Shown here: in pieces, positions 4,593 to 12,556 of the stretch | How positions within the stretch are numbered: position 1 is the stretch's first letter | How the letters are laid out: the number at the start of each line of letters is the position of its first letter | NCBI GenBank assembly: GCA_025936205.1 | Contig: JAICTU010000263.1 | Span: 1 to 12,556 of the forward strand | Reading direction: 5' to 3' | Source of the DNA: Polyangiaceae bacterium | GTDB taxonomy: Bacteria; Myxococcota; Polyangia; Polyangiales; Polyangiaceae | Length of the DNA: 12,556 nucleotides | The notes under the pieces: model-generated | What the model was told of the DNA's origin: nothing | Seen by the model: the letters and a program-made list of their open reading frames with translations, nothing else | Database searches by the model: none | Position numbers and translations under genes: made by a program

Positions 4593-4613
4593 CGAGTAGG
4601 TCGTATTTCCGGC

Positions 4614-5345
4614 TCAGCGCCCCAGCTCGCGGATGCGCGCGACGTGCGGATCGCGAGGATGCTGCCGGAGGAAGCGGCTCGCGGCGCGCTTCATCGCCGC
4701 GCTGTCGCCTTGCGCAGCCAGAGCTTCGATCGCCACCACGTCGGCGTCCGCGGCGAGCTCACCCTGCGGGAACTCGCGGTGATACTGCTCGATCTGGCGC
4801 AGAGCGCTGGCGTTGGCACCCACCGCGAGCGCCGTGCGCGCAGCGTCGAGGGCCGCGACTTCGCGCGCCAGCGACGACTCGGCGGAACGCGTGCTCGCGA
4901 GCGAGCTCGGCGAAGGTGTGGGCGGCTTGCGTGGGCGAGCGACGTTGCTCGCAGCCGCAGCACTGGCGGGCGTAGGTTCCACGGGTCGTTCAGCGAGCGA
5001 CGGCACGGCGCTATCCGTCGGAGTCACCACGACAGGAACCTCGCGCGCTGCCGGCACAGCAGCGGGTACAGCAGGCGACTCCGGCGGACGCAGCCAGACC
5101 GCCACCAGACTGCCGCCGCCGATGGCGCCGATCAGCGTCCATTTTGCGGCACGCACCGTCGCGCTTTCGAACCAGCCGCGCGGCTCGCTCGCCGAGGCGA
5201 GCGGCGCCAGCAAGGCGGCGTCCGCCGCAAAGCGCCGCCATGCGCCCTCGGTCGCGCCCGGGGGCGGCGCATCGCCGCGCGCGGATTCGAACAGGCTCCG
5301 TTCGAAGTCGGCCTGTGCGAGCTGCTCTGATTCGTGTCCGGTCAT
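4614..5345 (-). CDS. Single-pass membrane protein with periplasmic helical repeat, putative anti-sigma partner
   Basis: A 243-residue protein overlapping the sigma factor gene by 4 bp (ATGA), so the two are translationally coupled. Residues 1-65 are cytoplasmic, acidic and helical, and would be the part that contacts the sigma factor. A membrane helix lies at about 69-86 (WTLIGAIGGGSLVAVWL). A proline-, alanine- and serine-rich linker runs from about 87 to 155. A C-terminal domain (about 158-243) has TPR-like helical pairs (LAREVAALDAARTALAVGAN, then NASALRQIEQYHREFPQGEL) and ends LRQHPRDPHVARIRELGR. The zinc-binding HxxxCxxC motif of classical anti-sigma factors is absent. The anti-sigma role rests on position, topology and coupling alone; a periplasmic scaffold or sensor that merely shares the operon is possible. 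Confidence 0.75.
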   Translation of the reverse strand: MTGHESEQLAQADFERSLFESARGDAPPPGATEGAWRRFAADAALLAPLASASEPRGWFESATVRAAKWTLIGAIGGGSLVAVWLRPPESPAVPAAVPAAREVPVVVTPTDSAVPSLAERPVEPTPASAAAASNVARPRKPPTPSPSSLASTRSAESSLAREVAALDAARTALAVGANASALRQIEQYHREFPQGELAADADVVAIEALAAQGDSAAMKRAASRFLRQHPRDPHVARIRELGR

Positions 5346-5920
5346 GGCTTCCTCTGCGCGAAGGAGCGGGCGCGCAGCCGCCCGGCGATGGCGCTGAACT
5401 CCTCGCGCGCGCGGCGCAGCCGCGAGCCCACCGTGCCGATCGGGATGCCTTCGATCTCGGCGATGCTGCGCACATCGAGCCCCTCGAGCTCGAACAGCAC
5501 CAGCACCGCCCGCAGCTCGAGCGGCAGGCGCTCGAGCACGGCGTCGAGCAGCTGGCGGGCGCGCGCTTGCTCCAGTCGCTCTTCGGGCGTGGGTGCGCCG
5601 TCCACCAGGCTCTCCAGATCGTCGACGGCGCAGCGCGCAGGCGCGCTCGCCTGGCGGCGCAGCTCGTTGGCGGCAACGCGCAGAGCGACGCCGTACAGGA
5701 AGGCGTGTTGCTTGCCCGGCTCGATCTGCTCGAGCTTGCGCGCGGCCACCCAGAACACCTCTTGGGCAGCGTCATCGAGCTGCGCGATCGGCACACCCAG
5801 CCGGCGCAAGAGACGCCAGATGGACGCGTGGTACGCCTGGAACAGCGCGCGCAGATCGAGCGCCGCGCTTTCCGCGGCGTCGGTCGCGCTCGGAGCGTCC
5901 TGTGTCGCAGCACGCGACAT
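5342..5920 (-). CDS. ECF-type RNA polymerase sigma factor
   Basis: A 192-residue sigma-70 family protein of the extracytoplasmic-function type, with regions 2 and 4 only. Region 2 is residues about 24-90: LFQAYHASIWRLLRRLGV, then the polymerase-contacting LDDAAQEVFWVAARKL and the promoter-melting segment AFLYGVALRVAANELRR. Region 4 is about 123-176: LLDAVLERLPLELRAVLVL, then the helix-turn-helix DVRSIAEIEGIPIGTVGSRL for the -35 element. The ATG at 5920 is chosen because the conserved part then begins at the usual distance. A GTG at 5944 that shares one base with the upstream gene's TAG is the alternative. Neither has a clear Shine-Dalgarno, which suggests coupled translation from the upstream gene. 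The stop overlaps the start of the membrane protein. Confidence 0.9.
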   Translation of the reverse strand: MSRAATQDAPSATDAAESAALDLRALFQAYHASIWRLLRRLGVPIAQLDDAAQEVFWVAARKLEQIEPGKQHAFLYGVALRVAANELRRQASAPARCAVDDLESLVDGAPTPEERLEQARARQLLDAVLERLPLELRAVLVLFELEGLDVRSIAEIEGIPIGTVGSRLRRAREEFSAIAGRLRARSFAQRKP

Positions 5921-5943
5921 GCCGGGCAGGGAGTAGCTGCTCA

Positions 5944-7035
5944 CTAGAAGCGCAACCCGAGCCCCGCGAGCGCGAAGGCGTTGAACATGTTGGAGTGAAA
6001 CAGCTGGCTGCCGTCGGGGCGCTCGGCGCTGAGCTTGCTCACCCACAGCTCGCCGCCCAGGTTCAGGTCCAGATACAGCGCAGAGCCGAGGCTATATTGC
6101 GTGTGCGCCTCGAGGCTCACGGTGCCGAGACCCACCGTCTTGCTCTGCGTCTTGTTCCCAGCAACATCGCGCGTATCCAGGCCCATGACGCCCACCGCGA
6201 ACTCCGAGCACAGCTCCAGCACCAGGCCGTCGCGATTGTACGTCAGCGGCGCGCAAGAGCCGACGCCTGCTTTCAGCCCCCAGATCTCCGTGTCGAAGCC
6301 GGACGCGTGAAACTTTGCCGGCCCCAGAAAGCTCCAGCGCACGCGGAACAAGGCGCCGAGCAGGAAGTCCTGATCGCCGGGGGCAGACACCAGATTGGCA
6401 CGCGAGATCGAGAGGTCCAGTCGCGGCAAGGTCAGCCCCGGAATCACGCCGAAAGCGGCGCCGGCCGACAAAGTGTAACGCGCCATGTAGCCGAGGCTCA
6501 GCTGCCCCGCGGGGATCTCGACCTGGTCCTTGTACATCACCGTCTTCAGCGTGGGCGCGGGCGGCTCGACGGGGGCCGTCGAGAGCGCGGTGGCCGTGAC
6601 GATGGCCGCCGGTGCGACGCTCACCGTCACGGGAGCGGCCACCGACTGAATACCATTGGGCGAAGCCGCCGGGCTCGGTTCCGAGCCACCTTCGAGCGCG
6701 ATCGCCGCGACCACCGCGAGCGCGTCGCTCACCTCGGCGCAGGTGCTGCCATGCACGCGCCGCGCTCCGGAAGCCTCGCTGCCCTCTCCAACCTGAAAGC
6801 TGCCGGAGAAGCCGCCCGAACCGCGTTCGATGCGCACCCCGAAGAGCGTCGCCTCAGCGGCGCGCTCCAATGACGCCCCGCGCGCTTCCACCGCCGAAAC
6901 GAACGCCGCTTCCGTGGGGCAGCCCTCGGGGGCCACGTAAGAGAGCCGAGCGCTCGCGGCCTGCGCCGCCGAACTGGAGAGCACGATGGAACCCGCCCAG
7001 AGGACGCTGCCGAGGAGAGCTTTGCTCGCTGTCAC
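5944..7035 (-). CDS. Secreted protein with N-terminal cysteine-bearing domain and C-terminal barrel-like region
   Basis: A 363-residue exported protein. A signal peptide spans about 1-27 (ALLGSVLWAGSIVLS, ending SAAQA-A). Residues about 30-115 form a small domain with two cysteines, APEGCPTEAAF (Cys39) and GSTCAEVSDALAVVAAIAL (Cys99), which could form a disulfide. A proline/alanine/valine-rich linker follows (about 117-165). From about 170 on, amphipathic strands with aromatic residues alternate with turns (QLSLGYMARYTLS, ALYLDLNLGGELWVSKL), and the chain ends AGLGLRF. A terminal phenylalanine is typical of outer-membrane beta-barrels. The start is GTG at 7035, since an in-frame TAG lies just upstream; the nearest purine-rich stretch (GGAGGGGG) is unusually far, over 20 bases away. 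It comes first in the operon before the sigma gene. It may be the envelope component sensed by the sigma system, which is inference. Confidence 0.75.
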   Translation of the reverse strand: MTASKALLGSVLWAGSIVLSSSAAQAASARLSYVAPEGCPTEAAFVSAVEARGASLERAAEATLFGVRIERGSGGFSGSFQVGEGSEASGARRVHGSTCAEVSDALAVVAAIALEGGSEPSPAASPNGIQSVAAPVTVSVAPAAIVTATALSTAPVEPPAPTLKTVMYKDQVEIPAGQLSLGYMARYTLSAGAAFGVIPGLTLPRLDLSISRANLVSAPGDQDFLLGALFRVRWSFLGPAKFHASGFDTEIWGLKAGVGSCAPLTYNRDGLVLELCSEFAVGVMGLDTRDVAGNKTQSKTVGLGTVSLEAHTQYSLGSALYLDLNLGGELWVSKLSAERPDGSQLFHSNMFNAFALAGLGLRF

Positions 7036-7104: not shown

Positions 7105-10056
7105 TCAGGTTCCGAAGCGCAGGTGCCGTGCCTGGAGCACGTCCGGCGCCGGCGAAAAGGCCAGCGCGCGCTCGATCACGTTGCGCAGCTCGCGTACGTT
7201 ACCGCGCCAGGGGTGGGCGAGCAGCGCGGCCAGGGCGTCGGGGCCGAGCACCGGGGGCTCGCCCTCGTGCGTCAGCTGGCGGATGAAGTGCCGCGCCAGC
7301 ACCGGGATGTCTTCGGGGCGCTCGCGCAAGGGGGGCACGACGATGGGCACGACCTGCAGCCGGTAGTAGAGATCCTCGCGAAAGCGGCCCTCGCGCACCA
7401 GCTCCATCAGATCGCGGTGAGTGGCCGCCAGCACGCGCACGTCGACCTTGACCGGGCGCTGCCCGCCCAGCGGAAACACCTCGGCGTTCTCCAGGAAGCG
7501 CAGCAGCTTCGGCTGCAGATCGAGCGGCAGCTCGGCGATTTCATCGAGAAACAGCGTGCCCCCGTCGGCGGCGCGGATCACGCCCGGATGGTCCGAGTGA
7601 GCGCCGGTGAACGCGCCGCGCCGGTAGCCGAACAGCTGCCCCTCGAACAGGTCGCGCGGCACGCTGGCGCAGTTGAACGGCACGTAGCTGCCGTTGGAAC
7701 GCTGCGAGAGCGTGTGGATGGCGCGCGCCACCACCTCCTTACCGGAACCAGATTCGCCGCTGATGATCACGGTGGCGCGCGACGGCGCCAGCCGGACCAG
7801 CTCCGCGCGCAGCTTGCGCATCGCGGGCGAGGCCGCGATGAAGCCGGGGATCTCGGGTGCCTTGTCCTCGTTCAAGGGCGCCTCGAAGGGGTCGTTCACG
7901 GCGCGCAAGGTCGCGGCTTCGAGCGCCAGCGACGCGGTCATGGTCAGCACCGCGAGGACGGAGCGCTGGTGCTCGGCGAGCTCACCGCTCACTCCGATGC
8001 GCAGCAGCCGCCCGGCGCCGTCGCTGAACTCGACCCAGTCGTAGCCGGCGTCGCTCGCGCCGCCGACGCGCCGCGCTTCCGGCTCGCCCGAGCCGGCGAC
8101 GCCGCGCGCGTTGCCACCCGAATCGATCTCCTCCAGCCGCACTCCACGATCCGGGAACACGGCGCTCGCGATCGAGCTCAGCTCGCGTAACACCAGCCCG
8201 GGCCCGACCCCTCGCGCCGAGAGCCTCCGGATCGGCACCACCAGATCCTCGACCGCCAGCCGCTGTCCATCGCTCTTGGCATGGGTCGCCAACCTGCGGC
8301 TCTCGCGCAGGCGCTCGATGCCCACCGCGATCGAGCGCGGCGAGGTCACGCCCAGCCGGCTCAAAGCTTCGCGCGTCGCCTCCACGTCGGCGCGCGTGCC
8401 GTCGCCATATTCCTCCGCGATCACGGCCAGAACGTGCCGGCACAGCGCTGCGTCGCAGAGATCATGCGCCAGATCGAAGGTGGCGATCGCCGACTCGAGC
8501 AGCTGCCGCCCCGAGCTCCACTGGCCCTGGGCGCCGAGCAAGATGCCCTCCAGCCGGCGCAGATGGGCGCTGACCCAGGCAGACGGGAACATGTCGACGT
8601 GACGCTGAGCGCGCCGCAGCGCGAGCCGCGCCGGGCCGCCCTCCCCGGCCACGACGTGAGCGAGCACGCGGTGCATGAGCACGAAGCGCAGCAGCAACGG
8701 CCAGCGCTGCGCCTCGGCCTCGGCGCGCTCGAACGCGGCCACGGTGGCGGCCATGTCCTCGGCTGTCGCAATGCAAGCAGCCGCATCGGCCATCGCCGCG
8801 TACGCGCGCGAGACGGGCTTGAGCGCCGAGATCTCGCACTCCCGGAGCCGCGCGGCGAGGCGACCGAGCTGCTCGTGCCGTGCGCCCAGAAACATCAGCC
8901 GCGCCATGAACGGCACCGCCGAGAGCGGCACCAGCCCGGTCTCCGTGCTCCAGGCCTCGAGCTCGCCCAGCGCGACGAAGGCCTCGTCCATGCGACCCAG
9001 CCGCGCCAGCGCCTCCATCTCCGCGCGCAGCGCGAAGACCGCGTGAATGCCGGGCCCGATGCGCGAGCCCCGCGCGACCTGGCGCGAGCGCCGCGCCAGC
9101 TCCAGCGCGCGCAGCGGATCGGCCAGGTTCTCCAGCAACCCGAGCGCGATGTGGCCGAGCGCGCGCGCCTGCGCGACCTGGCAGCCGAGTTGCTCGGCGC
9201 GCTCTGCGATGCTCTCGAAGCCGCGCAGGGAGAGGGTCGTCTTGCCCGAGAACACGGGCCGCAACGCCTTGAACTCGTCCACGTGCAGCTCGAGCAGCGG
9301 CACCAGATTGACGAAGCCCGCGTCATCGAGCTTGGCGTAGGCTCGATCGATCAGCTCCCGATCGCCGACCACGGTGGCCGCGCACAGCTGCGCCAGGCAC
9401 GCCAGCCCCAGCGCCTCGAGGCCCGCGCGCACGGAGAGCGCCTCGACCCGCGCGGCATGAGCGTGCACACGCCCCAGATCGTACAGAGCGCCGTCCGGCA
9501 GCGAGTGCAACACGGCCGCGGCTGCATACACACGCCCCTGCACCTCTTCCGCCAGCTCGCCCGCCTCCGCTTGCTGCAGCGCCGGCGCCAGCACCAAGAG
9601 CGCGGCGCGCGGATCGGAACGCTGCAAGAGCTCCAGCACGGCCACACCGAAGCGCGCCAGCGCCAGCGCATCGGTCGAGAGGCTCGGACGCCGCATCGTC
9701 AGCTGCACCAGCTCGGCGTGGCCGCGCTGCAGATCCGAGCTGAACGCGCGCTGCAATACGGGCAGCACCAGCGCGATGTCCTCGGCGGCGGGCCGCGCGC
9801 GCTGGGGCAACGCCGGCGTTCGGGCAAGCGCTGGCTCCGAGGCGCCCGCCAGCTCACCGCGCGCCAGCGCCAGCAGCTTCTCCAGCTCGGCGCCGCGAGG
9901 CCGCCGCGATTCGCTCGCGTCCGCAGGCAGCTCCCAGCGGTAAATGGTGTGCGGGGTCACGCCGAGCCGGCGCGCGAAGGCGGCGCGGCTCGCCGCCCCG
10001 CGCAGATCGCGGATGCGTTCGGGGGACAGCTGCTCCATGGAGCTGGAGTATGCCAT
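7105..10056 (-). CDS. Sigma-54-dependent activator with N-terminal HTH, helical-repeat and GAF-like regions, no C-terminal Fis domain
   Basis: A 983-residue activator. Residues about 12-42 form a helix-turn-helix ([19 protein letters not shown]). About 90-590 is an all-helical repeat region of TPR character, a likely ligand or protein sensor. About 600-720 is GAF-like ([34 protein letters not shown]). About 735-965 is a complete AAA+ sigma-54 interaction domain with Walker A GESGSGKE (767-774), the sigma-54 contact loop GAFTGA (814-819), Walker [10 protein letters not shown] (832-840), REDLYYRL (893-900) and sensor [12 protein letters not shown] (950-959). Only 18 residues follow the last helix, so the usual C-terminal Fis-type DNA-binding domain is missing and DNA contact must come from the N-terminus. 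The start is ATG 10056; ATG 10038 is an alternative, and neither has a good Shine-Dalgarno. The gene is divergent from the efflux operon, its probable target. Confidence 0.92.
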
Positions 10057-10058
10057 GG
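10032..10058. repeat. CCATGG-centred repeats at the activator's start
   Basis: CCATGG occurs at 10035-10040 and 10053-10058, and a third time at the centre of the palindrome at 10066-10089 (10075-10080). The copy at 10035 is the core of a perfect 12-bp palindrome, GCTCCATGGAGC (10032-10043). The first two overlap the activator's two possible ATG codons, which accounts for part of the repetition. The cluster could also be a set of weaker sites for the same protein, giving autoregulation. Confidence 0.35.
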
Positions 10059-10065
10059 ACTAACC

Positions 10066-10089
10066 GGATGACATCCATGGATATCATCC
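10066..10089. promoter_or_regulatory. 24-bp near-perfect palindrome, candidate upstream activator site
   Basis: GGATGACATCCA (10066-10077) and TGGATATCATCC (10078-10089) are inverted copies with one mismatched pair out of twelve. The palindrome starts 10 bp upstream of the activator's ATG. Its centre is about 131 bp upstream of the transcription start predicted from the sigma-54 element at 10183-10198, which is within the usual distance for enhancer-like sites of sigma-54 activators. A binding site for the divergent activator's N-terminal HTH is the natural inference, with autorepression a second possible role. A further half-like copy, ACCGGATG, occurs at both 10063-10070 and 10170-10177. 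Confidence 0.55.
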
Positions 10090-10141
10090 AGCGCGCCCGG
10101 TTGGGGCCATCCACGGCTTGCCGAGCCCTGCCAGGAATCTT

Positions 10142-10154
10142 CAACTCATTGATT
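10142..10154 (-). promoter_or_regulatory. IHF-consensus site
   Basis: On the minus strand this reads AATCAATGAGTTG, which fits the IHF consensus WATCAANNNNTTR at every defined position. It lies in a short AT-rich patch (about 10138-10170) in otherwise very GC-rich DNA, between the palindrome and the -24/-12 element. That is where a bend is needed to loop a sigma-54 activator onto the promoter. The match is seen; occupancy by IHF or HU is inferred. Confidence 0.5.
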
Positions 10155-10182
10155 TCACATCAAACTAGCACCGGATGGCGCC

Positions 10183-10198
10183 CGGCACGCTTCCTGCT
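10183..10198 (+). promoter_or_regulatory. Sigma-54 (-24/-12) promoter-like element for the efflux operon
   Basis: CGGCACGCTTCCTGCT matches the consensus TGGCACGNNNNTTGCW at 10 of 12 defined positions. The invariant GG (10184-10185) and GC (10196-10197) are at the required 12-bp spacing. The predicted start of transcription is about 10209. This is compatible with translation from the ATG at 10211 (nearly leaderless) or 10220, but not with the ATG at 10175. Strong support comes from the divergent sigma-54 activator and the IHF site upstream; the short leader is the main objection. Confidence 0.5.
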
Positions 10199-10210
10199 GA
10201 AGCGAGCACC

Positions 10211-11524
10211 ATGACCGCAATGAGCAATGTGTCCGTGCTTCCCGGCCTAAAGGCCTCGCCCTCCGCTCCTACCGTTTCCCAGCGCGTCGCTGCCGAGCCC
10301 GAGACCGGCGCCACTCCCGCTCCCGACTCAGACACCGCCGCGGTCCCTGCCCCCAAGAGCGCCCGCCGCACACCGCGCGCGCTGATCGCCCTGCCCCTGC
10401 TCGCCGCCATCGGTCTGAGCGTGGGCGGCGGGGCGTACTTTCTAGGCCGCGGTCACGAGACCACCAACGACGCGCAGGTGGAAGGCCACGTGGCGAGCGT
10501 CGCCGCGCGCGTCGCGGGCCAGGTCGAGCAGGTGCTCGTGAACGACAACCAGCTGGTGAAGGCCGGCGACGTGCTGGTGGTGCTCGACGATCGCGACCTC
10601 GCGGCCAAGGTCGCCGCGGCCCGCGCCGATCTCTCGGCCATGCAAGCGCAGGCCCGCGCCGCCGAGACGCAGCTCGCGGTGACGGAGAAGTCCTCTCACT
10701 CCAACCTGGTGATCGCGCGCGGCGGCCTCGCGCAAGCGGCCGCCGTGGAAGGCACGACCAAGGCCGGTATCGATCGCGCCCGCGCCGACATCGTGGCGGC
10801 CGAGTCGCGGCGCAAGCTCGCCGAGATCGAGCTCTCGCGCACCCAGCAGCTGGTCGAAGGCGGCGCGCTCTCGCAGGCCGAGCTGGACGCCAAGCGCTCC
10901 GCGTTCGAACAGGCCGATGCAGCGCTGGGCCAGGCGCGCGCGCAGTACGCCAGCGCGCAGGCCAACATCGGCAACTCCTCGGGCACCATCGACTCCGCGC
11001 GCGGCCGCCTGATCGCGGCTGAATCCGGGCCTGCACAGATCGAGGCCGCGCGAGCCCAGCTGGAGCTGAGCCGCGCCCGAGTGGCACAAGCTCAGGCCGC
11101 GCTGGAGCAGGCGGAGCTGAACCTCTCGCACACCAAGGTGCTGGCCAGCGTCTCGGGCGTCGTCTCGCGCCGATCGGTGGAAGTCGGCCAGATGGCGTCG
11201 CCGGATCGCCCGCTGATGGCGCTGGTGCCGCTCGATGACACCTGGGTCGTCGCCAACTTCAAGGAAGACCAGATCGCCCAGATGCACCCGGGCCAGACCG
11301 CCCGCGTGCACATCGACACCTACGGTCAGGAGCTGATCGGACACGTCGACAGCCTCGCCAGCGGCACGGGCTCGCGCTTCTCGCTGCTGCCGCCGGACAA
11401 TGCCTCCGGCAATTTCACCAAGGTGGTGCAGCGCGTGCCCGTGTTGATCCGCCTGGATGCGCATCCTGACCTGACGCTGCGCCCGGGCATGAGCGCGACC
11501 GCGACGGTCGAGACCAAGGGCTGA
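10211..11524 (+). CDS. emrA: EmrA/HlyD-family membrane fusion protein of a multidrug efflux pump
   Basis: A periplasmic adaptor of about 437 residues that links an inner-membrane MFS pump to an outer-membrane channel. A proline/alanine-rich cytoplasmic N-terminus (1-55) precedes a single membrane anchor at about 57-78 (ALIALPLLAAIGLSVGGGAY). Next is the family signature TNDAQVEGHV (85-94), then the first half of the lipoyl-like domain (GQVEQVLVNDNQLVKAGDVL). A long coiled-coil hairpin is rich in alanine, glutamine and arginine. The second lipoyl half (LNLSHTKVLASVSGVVSRRS) is followed by the beta-barrel domain WVVANFKEDQIAQMHPGQ. The ATG at 10211 is preferred because GAAGCGAG precedes it and because of the promoter at 10183; ATG 10175 (449 residues) and ATG 10220 are alternatives. 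emrB follows after 5 bp. No TolC-like gene is in the window. Confidence 0.9.
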   Translation: MTAMSNVSVLPGLKASPSAPTVSQRVAAEPETGATPAPDSDTAAVPAPKSARRTPRALIALPLLAAIGLSVGGGAYFLGRGHETTNDAQVEGHVASVAARVAGQVEQVLVNDNQLVKAGDVLVVLDDRDLAAKVAAARADLSAMQAQARAAETQLAVTEKSSHSNLVIARGGLAQAAAVEGTTKAGIDRARADIVAAESRRKLAEIELSRTQQLVEGGALSQAELDAKRSAFEQADAALGQARAQYASAQANIGNSSGTIDSARGRLIAAESGPAQIEAARAQLELSRARVAQAQAALEQAELNLSHTKVLASVSGVVSRRSVEVGQMASPDRPLMALVPLDDTWVVANFKEDQIAQMHPGQTARVHIDTYGQELIGHVDSLASGTGSRFSLLPPDNASGNFTKVVQRVPVLIRLDAHPDLTLRPGMSATATVETKG

Positions 11525-11529
11525 GCGTC

Positions 11530-12556
11530 ATGAGCCGCGAGGAAGTCTCTGGGTCCAAGCTGGGCGTCACCGTGGTGGTGATGACCGCGGCGCTGATGGC
11601 GATGATCGACATCACCATCGTCAACGTGGCGCTGAACGATATCCGTGCCAGCTTCGGCACACCGATCGACCAGATCGGCTGGGTGTCGACCGGCTACATG
11701 ATGGCCAACATCGTGATCATCCCGATGACGGGCTGGTTCCAGCGCCGCTTCGGCTATCGCCGCTACTTCGCCGGCTCGGTCGCCCTGTTCACGCTGGCCA
11801 GCGCCCTGTGCAGCCTGGCCTGGAACCTACCGTCCCTGGTCCTGTTCCGCGCGCTGCAAGGCCTCGGCGGCGGCGCCATCATCCCCACTGCGCAGAGCAT
11901 CCTGTTCGCGCGCTATCCACAGAAAGAACACGGCATGGCCGCGGCGCTCTTCGGCCTCGGCGCGATCACGGGCCCCCTGCTCGGGCCGACCATCGGCGGC
12001 TACCTGATCGACTGGTCCAGCTGGCACTGGATCTTCACGGTCAACGTGCCCATCGGCCTCGCGGTGGCGCTGCTCGCCCTGCGCTTCATCGATCAACCCG
12101 GCTTCGTCCCGCCCTCCGGCAAAGAAGCAAAGATCGACGCCTTCGGCATCGCCCTACTGGCGGTGGGCATGGCCTCCCTGCAATACGTGCTGGAAGAAGG
12201 CAACCGCGAAGGCTGGTTCGACAGCACACTGATCGCCGTGCTCACGGGCGTCGCCGCGACCACCCTGATCACCTTCATCATCCACGAGCTCGAGACCGAG
12301 CAACCGATCGTCGACCTGCGCGTCTTTTTGAAGCGCAGCTACGCCGCCGGCACCGGCCTCAACTTCCTCACCGGCTTCGCCCTGTTCAGCGGCTCCTTCA
12401 TGTTCTCCCTCTATGCGGGCTCGGTGCTGCACTACAGCGCGCTCGACATCGGCAAAGTCTTCCTGGCTGCCGGCTCCATCTCGATCGTCATGATGCCCCT
12501 GATCGGGCGCCTCGGACCCAAAGTGGACGGCCGCCTCTTGCTCGCCATCGGCGTCA
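11530..12556 (+). CDS. emrB: EmrB/QacA-type DHA2 family MFS drug transporter (runs off right edge)
   Basis: The first 342 codons of an inner-membrane proton-driven drug exporter; the 3' end is beyond the window. The protein opens MSREEVSGSKLGVTVVVMTA. The DHA2-type helix-1 motif MIDITIVNVALNDI (about 25-38) carries the membrane-buried aspartate. GWVSTGYMMANIVIIPMTGW starts helix 2, and the loop motif A appears as GWFQRRFGYRR. LFRALQGLGGGAIIP is helix 4. Motif C, the antiporter signature, is GAITGPLLGPTIGG, followed by the typical WHWIFTVNVPIGLAV. About ten hydrophobic segments are visible before the edge. It starts 5 bp after emrA's stop, with only a weak AAGGG upstream, so translation is probably coupled. 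With EmrA it would export hydrophobic or uncoupler-like compounds; the actual substrate is unknown. Confidence 0.93.
   Translation, partial: MSREEVSGSKLGVTVVVMTAALMAMIDITIVNVALNDIRASFGTPIDQIGWVSTGYMMANIVIIPMTGWFQRRFGYRRYFAGSVALFTLASALCSLAWNLPSLVLFRALQGLGGGAIIPTAQSILFARYPQKEHGMAAALFGLGAITGPLLGPTIGGYLIDWSSWHWIFTVNVPIGLAVALLALRFIDQPGFVPPSGKEAKIDAFGIALLAVGMASLQYVLEEGNREGWFDSTLIAVLTGVAATTLITFIIHELETEQPIVDLRVFLKRSYAAGTGLNFLTGFALFSGSFMFSLYAGSVLHYSALDIGKVFLAAGSISIVMMPLIGRLGPKVDGRLLLAIGV

What the first reader, a model, noticed from the sequence alone, without database searches (positions are those of the whole stretch)
10057..10210. Complete sigma-54 switch (activator site, IHF bend site, -24/-12 promoter) between an activator gene and an efflux operon
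Seen in sequence: a 24-bp near-perfect palindrome (10066-10089), an exact IHF consensus match (10142-10154) and a 10-of-12 sigma-54 promoter match with correct GG/GC spacing (10183-10198), in the canonical order and at canonical distances. The divergent gene encodes a GAFTGA-bearing sigma-54 activator. Known: sigma-54 activators bind 80-200 bp upstream and often need IHF looping. Inferred: this activator controls the emrAB-type operon. Local sigma-54 control of an EmrAB efflux pump is not a standard arrangement.
Basis: partly seen in the sequence, partly recalled or inferred. Interest (0 to 1): 0.72.

Follow-up and report, generated by a model that had tools for sequence, protein, structure and literature searches.

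The report
Sigma-54 switch for an efflux pump

Summary
Alone, the sigma-54 match is at chance level for the window (3 found, 2.39 expected). Comparison decides the case: in 9 other loci from myxobacteria-type genomes the same activator stands divergent to the same EmrA gene, and in all 10 the best sigma-54 site on the pump strand lies beside the pump gene's start (GG-N10-GC in 9, GG-N10-GT in 1; combined P 1e-11 to 2e-13). The promoter and its link to the activator are well supported. The '24-bp palindrome' is better read as two adjacent 13-bp operators, TGGA-N5-TCCA, a motif in 7 of 10 loci and about 21-fold enriched there. The IHF site is only partly supported (exact in 2 of 10 loci). The activator has an unusual order: HTH, TPR-like solenoid, GAF-like domain, C-terminal sigma-54 AAA+, no C-terminal HTH. 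New here: in 9 of 10 loci the start codon lies 13-19 nt after the -12 C, predicting an mRNA leader of 1-7 nt. The same spacing is over-represented at sigma-54 consensus sites in 106 family genomes. No expression data exist.

The parts
7105..10038 (-). Sigma-54 activator gene (977 aa; a longer 983-aa start at 10056 is possible): HTH, TPR-like solenoid, small GAF-like domain, C-terminal AAA+ with GAFTGA, no C-terminal HTH
   Evidence: the 977-aa form is entry P0001
10065..10090 (.). Two tandem operators 13 bp apart: CGGATGACATCCA (10065-10077) and TGGATATCATCCA (10078-10090); motif TGGA-N5-TCCA; 27-52 bp upstream of the activator start at 10038 and 119-144 bp upstream of the predicted pump transcription start
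10142..10154 (-). IHF-consensus match AATCAATGAGTTG in an AT-rich tract between operator and promoter
10183..10198 (+). Sigma-54 promoter CGGCACGCTTCCTGCT (GG 10184-10185, GC 10196-10197)
10209..10209 (+). Predicted transcription start (12 nt after the C of the -12 GC), 2 nt before the start codon: near-leaderless mRNA
   Evidence: inferred; spacing trend
10211..11524 (+). EmrA/HlyD-type periplasmic adaptor (437 aa); a second in-frame ATG is at 10220
11530..12556 (+). EmrB-type DHA2 MFS permease, cut off by the window end
   Evidence: TIGR00711, 333.9 bits, cut-off 230.2

Best explanation
This is a local, dedicated sigma-54 switch. The divergent gene encodes a sigma-54 activator whose N-terminal HTH binds tandem TGGA-N5-TCCA operators just upstream of its own gene. 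When its TPR-like/GAF-like middle part receives a signal (unknown; possibly a small molecule or peptide that the pump exports), the C-terminal AAA+ ring contacts RNA polymerase-sigma54 at the -24/-12 promoter about 120-145 bp away, across an AT-rich tract bent by IHF/HU or by its own sequence, and opens it. The emrA-emrB operon (with a TolC-type gene in some relatives) is then transcribed from a start that nearly coincides with the AUG, giving a near-leaderless mRNA. Binding next to its own start codon probably also limits the activator's own expression. Shown by comparison: gene pairing, promoter, operator motif, activator motifs, RpoN in relatives. Inferred: binding, direction of regulation, signal, looping, transcription start, autoregulation.
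For: Gene pairing: 9 of the 10 genomes with a strong homologue (E<=1e-60) among 108 family genomes have the activator's start divergent to EmrA. Promoter: the best plus-strand sigma-54 site of each segment is the one at the pump start in 10 of 10 loci (9-11 of 12 positions); GG in 10 of 10, GC in 9 and GT in 1; combined P 2.4e-13, or 1.4e-11 without the near-duplicate L007. Real-sequence control: 5 of 71 neighbouring genes reach 9 or more in the 50 bases upstream, against 10 of 10 (Fisher 1.6e-9). Operator: 14 sites in 1,672 intergenic bases against 43 in about 110 kb elsewhere in the loci. Activator: GAFTGA exact in 45 of 52 aligned homologues, the rest GSFTGA (4), GAYTGA (2), GAYAGA (1); Walker A and B kept. 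AAA+ part of the model matches FlrC, NtrC1 and PspF. RpoN DNA-binding domain in 11 of 11 genomes searched. No E. coli-type sigma-70 site in 10000-10260.
Against: No expression, binding or transcription-start data. The window's own genome is not held, so its RpoN and IHF were not seen. Over the whole intergenic stretch three loci are not individually significant (L002 0.10, L006 0.17, L020 0.11), and L018 and L020 have a 9-of-12 site on the other strand too. The operator motif at 7 of 8 positions is absent from 3 of 10 loci (L006, L007, L020) and was derived from these same loci. Exact operator-like sequences occur elsewhere in the genomes, and in 3 of 5 genomes the exact pattern searched is not at this locus. 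One genome (G023) keeps activator and an 11-of-12 promoter with a different gene in front. In G005 the activator is in two pieces on separate contigs, taken by me as one gene.
Confidence: 0.82

Rival explanations
1. The promoter match is a chance hit and the pump is transcribed from another type of promoter, with the divergent protein acting as repressor or having another target.
For: The match alone is at chance level in the window. A TTGATT hexamer stands in the AT-rich tract. Some distant homologues (L025, L026, L027) have no EmrAB neighbour, and their adjacent intergenic stretches gave at best 8 or 9 of 12.
Against: Conservation in 10 of 10 loci; no sigma-70-type site passed the scan, though that scan knows only the E. 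coli consensus; GAFTGA, the sigma-54 contact loop, is conserved.
Confidence: 0.07
2. The promoter is real but is driven by another sigma-54 activator; the palindrome serves only autorepression of the divergent gene.
For: The operators lie next to the activator's own start, and in L001 and L002 they touch or overlap its predicted start codon. Myxobacteria have many sigma-54 activators (53 reported for M. xanthus, PMC3162934, passages).
Against: The pairing is kept in 9 of 10 genomes, the operator lies at a usual enhancer distance, and L002 has a copy reaching to 50 bp from the -12 element.
Confidence: 0.11
3. The start codon is further downstream than 10211, so the mRNA has an ordinary leader and the near-leaderless reading is wrong.
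For: In the window a second in-frame ATG lies at 10220 and GTGs follow. In L018 the in-frame ATG is 43 nt after the -12 C, behind GAGGAG, an ordinary leader.
Against: In 9 of 10 loci an in-frame ATG lies 13-19 nt after the -12 C, followed by an Ala, Thr or Val codon; in 5 of them (L001, L004, L005, L006, L007) it is the only in-frame ATG/GTG/TTG of the stretch checked, and in 3 (L002, L003, L020) the only other is a GTG 42-66 nt further on. The same spacing is enriched at sigma-54 consensus sites in 106 genomes. Odds lowered from my draft.
Confidence: 0.15

Closest known systems
Bacterial sigma-54 enhancer-binding proteins (NtrC/NorR/FlrC/PspF type)
   Same: AAA+ domain with GAFTGA, Walker A/B and lid; conserved -24/-12 promoter with upstream operator at a usual enhancer distance
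   Different: DNA-binding HTH at the N-terminus; long TPR-like sensor; the AAA+ domain is the C-terminal end. The four architectures given in PMC3162934 (Ia, Ib, Ic, II; passages) do not include this order; type II has an N-terminal DNA-binding domain but PTS-related domains after the central one. That paper also speaks of about 136 Pfam domain compositions, which I did not see listed
RRNPP-type peptide receptors (Rap, PlcR, Rgg; family name and features recalled)
EmrAB-TolC efflux operon with MarR-family repressor EmrR (E. coli; recalled)
   Same: EmrA-like adaptor and EmrB-type DHA2 permease side by side; a TolC-type gene follows in L002 and L005
   Different: Apparently controlled by a sigma-54 activator instead of a MarR repressor
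Nla28 regulon of Myxococcus xanthus (PMC9765219, passages)
   Same: Sigma-54 activator with efflux operons (RND, CusAB) among its targets
   Different: A starvation regulator with many targets, not a local divergent one; other pump families

Membership tests
Sigma-54 enhancer-binding proteins | Sigma54_activat AAA+ domain with GAFTGA, Walker A and Walker B | tested here: met
Sigma-54 enhancer-binding proteins | Own DNA-binding domain (Fis-type and C-terminal in most members; some members lack it) | tested here: inconclusive
   No C-terminal HTH: 12-32 residues follow the lid in 52 homologues. An N-terminal HTH is indicated instead: four helices in the model, Pfam HTH models at E 1e-3 to 1e-4, below the HTH_31 cut-off
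Sigma-54 enhancer-binding proteins | Activates transcription by RNA polymerase-sigma54 | not testable with these tools
   Needs a transcription assay
Sigma-54-dependent promoter | GG and GC dinucleotides 10 bp apart in TGGCACGN4TTGCW context, conserved in orthologous loci | tested here: met
   GG 10 of 10, GC 9 of 10 loci
IHF-assisted sigma-54 promoter | IHF consensus between operator and promoter | tested here: inconclusive
   Exact in 2 of 10, 8 of 9 positions in 3 more (each not significant alone, P 0.10-0.25), all starting 46-56 nt before the -12 C; five loci nothing beyond chance; himA-like genes in 11 of 11 genomes, none over the cut-off
EmrAB multidrug efflux pump | EmrB-type DHA2 permease | tested here: met
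   TIGR00711 333.9 bits for the truncated window copy, 438.7 for L003, 431.4 for L002; cut-off 230.2
EmrAB multidrug efflux pump | EmrA-type adaptor | tested here: inconclusive
   TIGR00998 (EmrA/EmrK) is the best hit but 250.2 bits is under its cut-off 390.8; the protein passes the cut-off of the broader TIGR01730 RND adaptor model (136.5 over 94.9)
EmrAB multidrug efflux pump | Exports drugs or other toxic compounds | not testable with these tools
   Substrate unknown
RRNPP peptide receptors | HTH plus TPR receptor that binds a secreted peptide | tested here: inconclusive
   Architecture and fold resemble; no peptide gene was looked for; a profile of residues 1-236 found no relative in the PDB by sequence

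The most novel reading that the evidence does not exclude
In this myxobacterial family sigma-54 commonly makes leaderless or near-leaderless mRNAs: the -12 element is set so that transcription starts at the AUG. This efflux switch belongs to that class and is run by a new activator architecture, an HTH-TPR receptor of the peptide-sensing type fused to a sigma-54 AAA+ motor, which senses the exported compound or a peptide and turns on its own pump.
Probability: 0.35. Interest if true: 0.7.

Novelty: new variant of a known kind. Interest (0 to 1): 0.52.

Why it matters
It would link a pump family known (as I recall) under MarR repressors to an ATP-driven sigma-54 switch, show a sigma-54 activator with its domains in an unusual order, and point to a class of sigma-54 promoters that abut the start codon. 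The last point is directly testable by transcription-start mapping in a cultured relative and bears on how translation starts on sigma-54 transcripts without a Shine-Dalgarno site.

Tried and rejected
Judging the promoter from the window alone: rejected, as the match count equals chance. IHF conservation: tested, inconclusive. Genome-wide uniqueness of the operator: one exact pattern in 5 genomes, 33 rows, only 2 genomes with it at this locus; not shown. One other identical site (L042) was read and not analysed further. A solved relative of the HTH part by sequence: only two hits at E 0.39, taken as chance. Homologues without EmrAB beside them (L024, L025, L026, L027) were scanned separately and kept out of the 10-locus counts. 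Loci L009-L014 and L017 repeat places already held; L015/L029 is the second piece of the G005 activator. Genome tallies are lower bounds, since only 2 to 10 first-look candidates per genome were scored. Papers: searches gave listings; passages were read from PMC3616915, PMC12316311, PMC6615313, PMC3162934, PMC7910581 and PMC9765219, and a term search of PMC4641369 returned no passage. None of these passages reports sigma-54 control of an EmrAB pump or leaderless sigma-54 mRNA in myxobacteria; the eight papers were not opened, and the mentions of 'major facilitator superfamily' in PMC12316311 and PMC4641369 (listing) were not read.

Mended on re-check: distances first written as from the -13 G are from the -12 C (one search shows the one-base difference); the predicted leader is 1-7 nt, not 0-6; the in-frame ATG of L018 is at 43 nt, not 35.

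Full report
What was checked. The palindrome, the IHF match and the sigma-54 match are at the stated coordinates. In the window alone the sigma-54 match is no more than chance (3 found with up to 2 mismatches, 2.39 expected). The IHF match is unique in the window but 14 of 200 shuffles also had one. The 24-bp palindrome with 11 of 12 pairs is unique, and 11 of 100 shuffles had one or more. So the finding could not be settled from one sequence.

Relatives. A protein search found 103 homologues of the activator's N-terminal part among 7,996 candidates scored; by my comparison of the two lists, at least 23 of them have the same longest-contig length as one of the 120 EmrA homologues listed, besides the window's own pair. 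In whole genomes the activator is rare: 10 of 108 genomes of one family, the same 10 among 183 of the order, and 5 of 377 sampled from the phylum at a looser threshold; these are lower bounds. In 9 of the 10 family genomes the activator's start is divergent to EmrA. In G005 that start and the rest of the activator lie on different contigs, and the second piece stands in a frame that begins with other sequence. In the tenth genome, G023, the promoter (11 of 12) is present but the gene in front encodes a CoA-binding-domain protein. A TolC-type gene lies behind the permease in L002 and L005.

Promoter. I scanned the ten intergenic segments (window plus nine loci) for TGGCACGN4TTGCW. In all ten the top plus-strand site of the segment was the one beside the EmrA start, with 9, 10 or 11 of 12 positions; L018 and L020 also have a 9 on the other strand. 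GG is kept in 10 of 10 and GC in 9 of 10, with GT in L002, while bases around them vary. Against dinucleotide shuffles, taking the last 50 bases before the ATG, the combined P is 2.4e-13, and 1.4e-11 without L007, which is nearly the same as L006; over whole intergenic stretches single-locus P runs from 0.001 to 0.17. As a control from real sequence, 5 of 71 neighbouring genes (mechanical ORF starts with 50 bases upstream) have a site of 9 or more, against 10 of 10 here. RpoN is encoded in 11 of 11 genomes tested.

Operator. The window's palindrome is two 13-bp units, CGGATGACATCCA and TGGATATCATCCA, head to tail. The motif TGGA-N5-TCCA with at most one mismatch occurs 14 times in 1,672 intergenic bases and 43 times in the other 110 kb of the same loci, a 21-fold enrichment. 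It is present in 7 of 10 loci, four times in L002, and missing in this form from L006, L007 and L020. The motif was read from these same loci, so the enrichment is optimistic. With the longer 15-bp consensus the best site is individually unlikely (P under 0.05) in 6 of 10 loci. In L001 and L002 an operator touches or overlaps the activator's predicted start codon, hence the proposal of autoregulation.

IHF. An exact IHF match lies between operator and promoter in the window and in L006; L001, L003 and L004 have one mismatch, each not significant alone (P 0.10-0.25); all five start 46-56 bases before the -12 C, mostly in an AT-rich tract. The remaining five show nothing beyond chance. A DNA bend is plausible; IHF itself is not established. 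IHF/HU-type genes are in 11 of 11 genomes but none passed the himA cut-off.

Leader. The distance from the C of the -12 GC to the A of the ATG is 14 (window), 18, 15, 17, 19, 17, 13, 13 and 13 nt in nine loci. In L018 the in-frame ATG is 43 nt away behind GAGGAG (one search had counted an out-of-frame ATG at 35). In five loci this ATG is the only in-frame start codon of the stretch checked, in three more the only other is a distant GTG, and the window has a further ATG at 10220. With a start 12 nt after the C, the leader would be 1-7 nt. To ask whether this is special, I searched 106 family genomes for exact TGGCACGN4TTGCW followed by ATG in three equal 8-nt windows: 93 matches at gap 10-17 (44 genomes), 38 at gap 18-25 (27 genomes) and 29 at gap 30-37 (20 genomes); P 1e-10 against equal thirds. 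The P is optimistic, because related genomes share promoters and three sites count twice; gaps 26-29 were not searched. Within the first window, gaps 11-13 (predicted leader 1-3 nt) hold 59 of 93 rows (my count). Of 21 near cases in the 20 loci fetched, 15 open a frame of 100 codons or more and 2 have an AGGA/GGAG/GAGG-type site; of 10 far cases 9 and 6. Six of the 21 near cases open only shorter frames, so part of the set is probably chance. Start-codon-abutting sigma-54 promoters nevertheless look common in this family. Leaderless mRNAs as such are known, for example 171 in Sinorhizobium meliloti (PMC3616915, passages).

Literature. PMC3162934 (passages) describes four basic architectures of sigma-54 activators; none has an N-terminal HTH with the AAA+ domain at the C-terminal end. 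PMC9765219 (passages) lists efflux operons with sigma-54 promoters under Nla28 in M. xanthus. The passages of PMC12316311 that I saw do not mention EmrAB-type genes; its mentions of major facilitators were not read (one search failed). PMC4641369 and PMC6615313 hold no mention of efflux.

Verdict. The switch is real with high probability and its wiring is of a known kind; the activator architecture and the near-leaderless promoter geometry are the new parts.

Noticed in passing
Family genomes, e.g. L053-L072: Sigma-54 consensus sites followed by ATG at a gap of 10-17 nt are about three times as frequent as at 30-37 nt (93 against 29 rows), mostly without a Shine-Dalgarno site in the loci checked: a likely class of near-leaderless sigma-54 mRNAs.
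   Followed up: partly
L024 (G023:C339), around 4600-5000: Activator homologue with an 11-of-12 sigma-54 site that by eye resembles the window's promoter region, but the gene in front encodes a CoA-binding-domain protein and no EmrA was found there; in L019, the same place, the activator match falls in two frames near residue 844.
   Followed up: partly
L025, L026, L027: Distant homologues of the activator without EmrAB neighbours; L025's is divergent to a gene whose start looks like 2-oxoglutarate dehydrogenase E1 (recalled, not searched).
   Followed up: no
L023 11110-11517 and L025 11344-12492: Two neighbouring genes with 11-of-12 sigma-54 sites in the 50 bases upstream, possibly further sigma-54 targets.
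   Followed up: no
L029 1-2580 (G005:C157): An open frame that starts with sequence unlike the activator and continues as activator residues 309 onward; either a contig misjoin or a real fusion.
   Followed up: no
window 5342-6046 (-) and 4614-5345 (-): A gene with sigma-70 region 2 and region 4 matches, followed by a gene with a YfiO/TPR-like match, overlapping by 4 bases; looks like a separate signalling unit.
   Followed up: no
window 10167-10182 (-): A small hairpin with a T-rich tail on the minus strand just ahead of the sigma-54 site.
   Followed up: no
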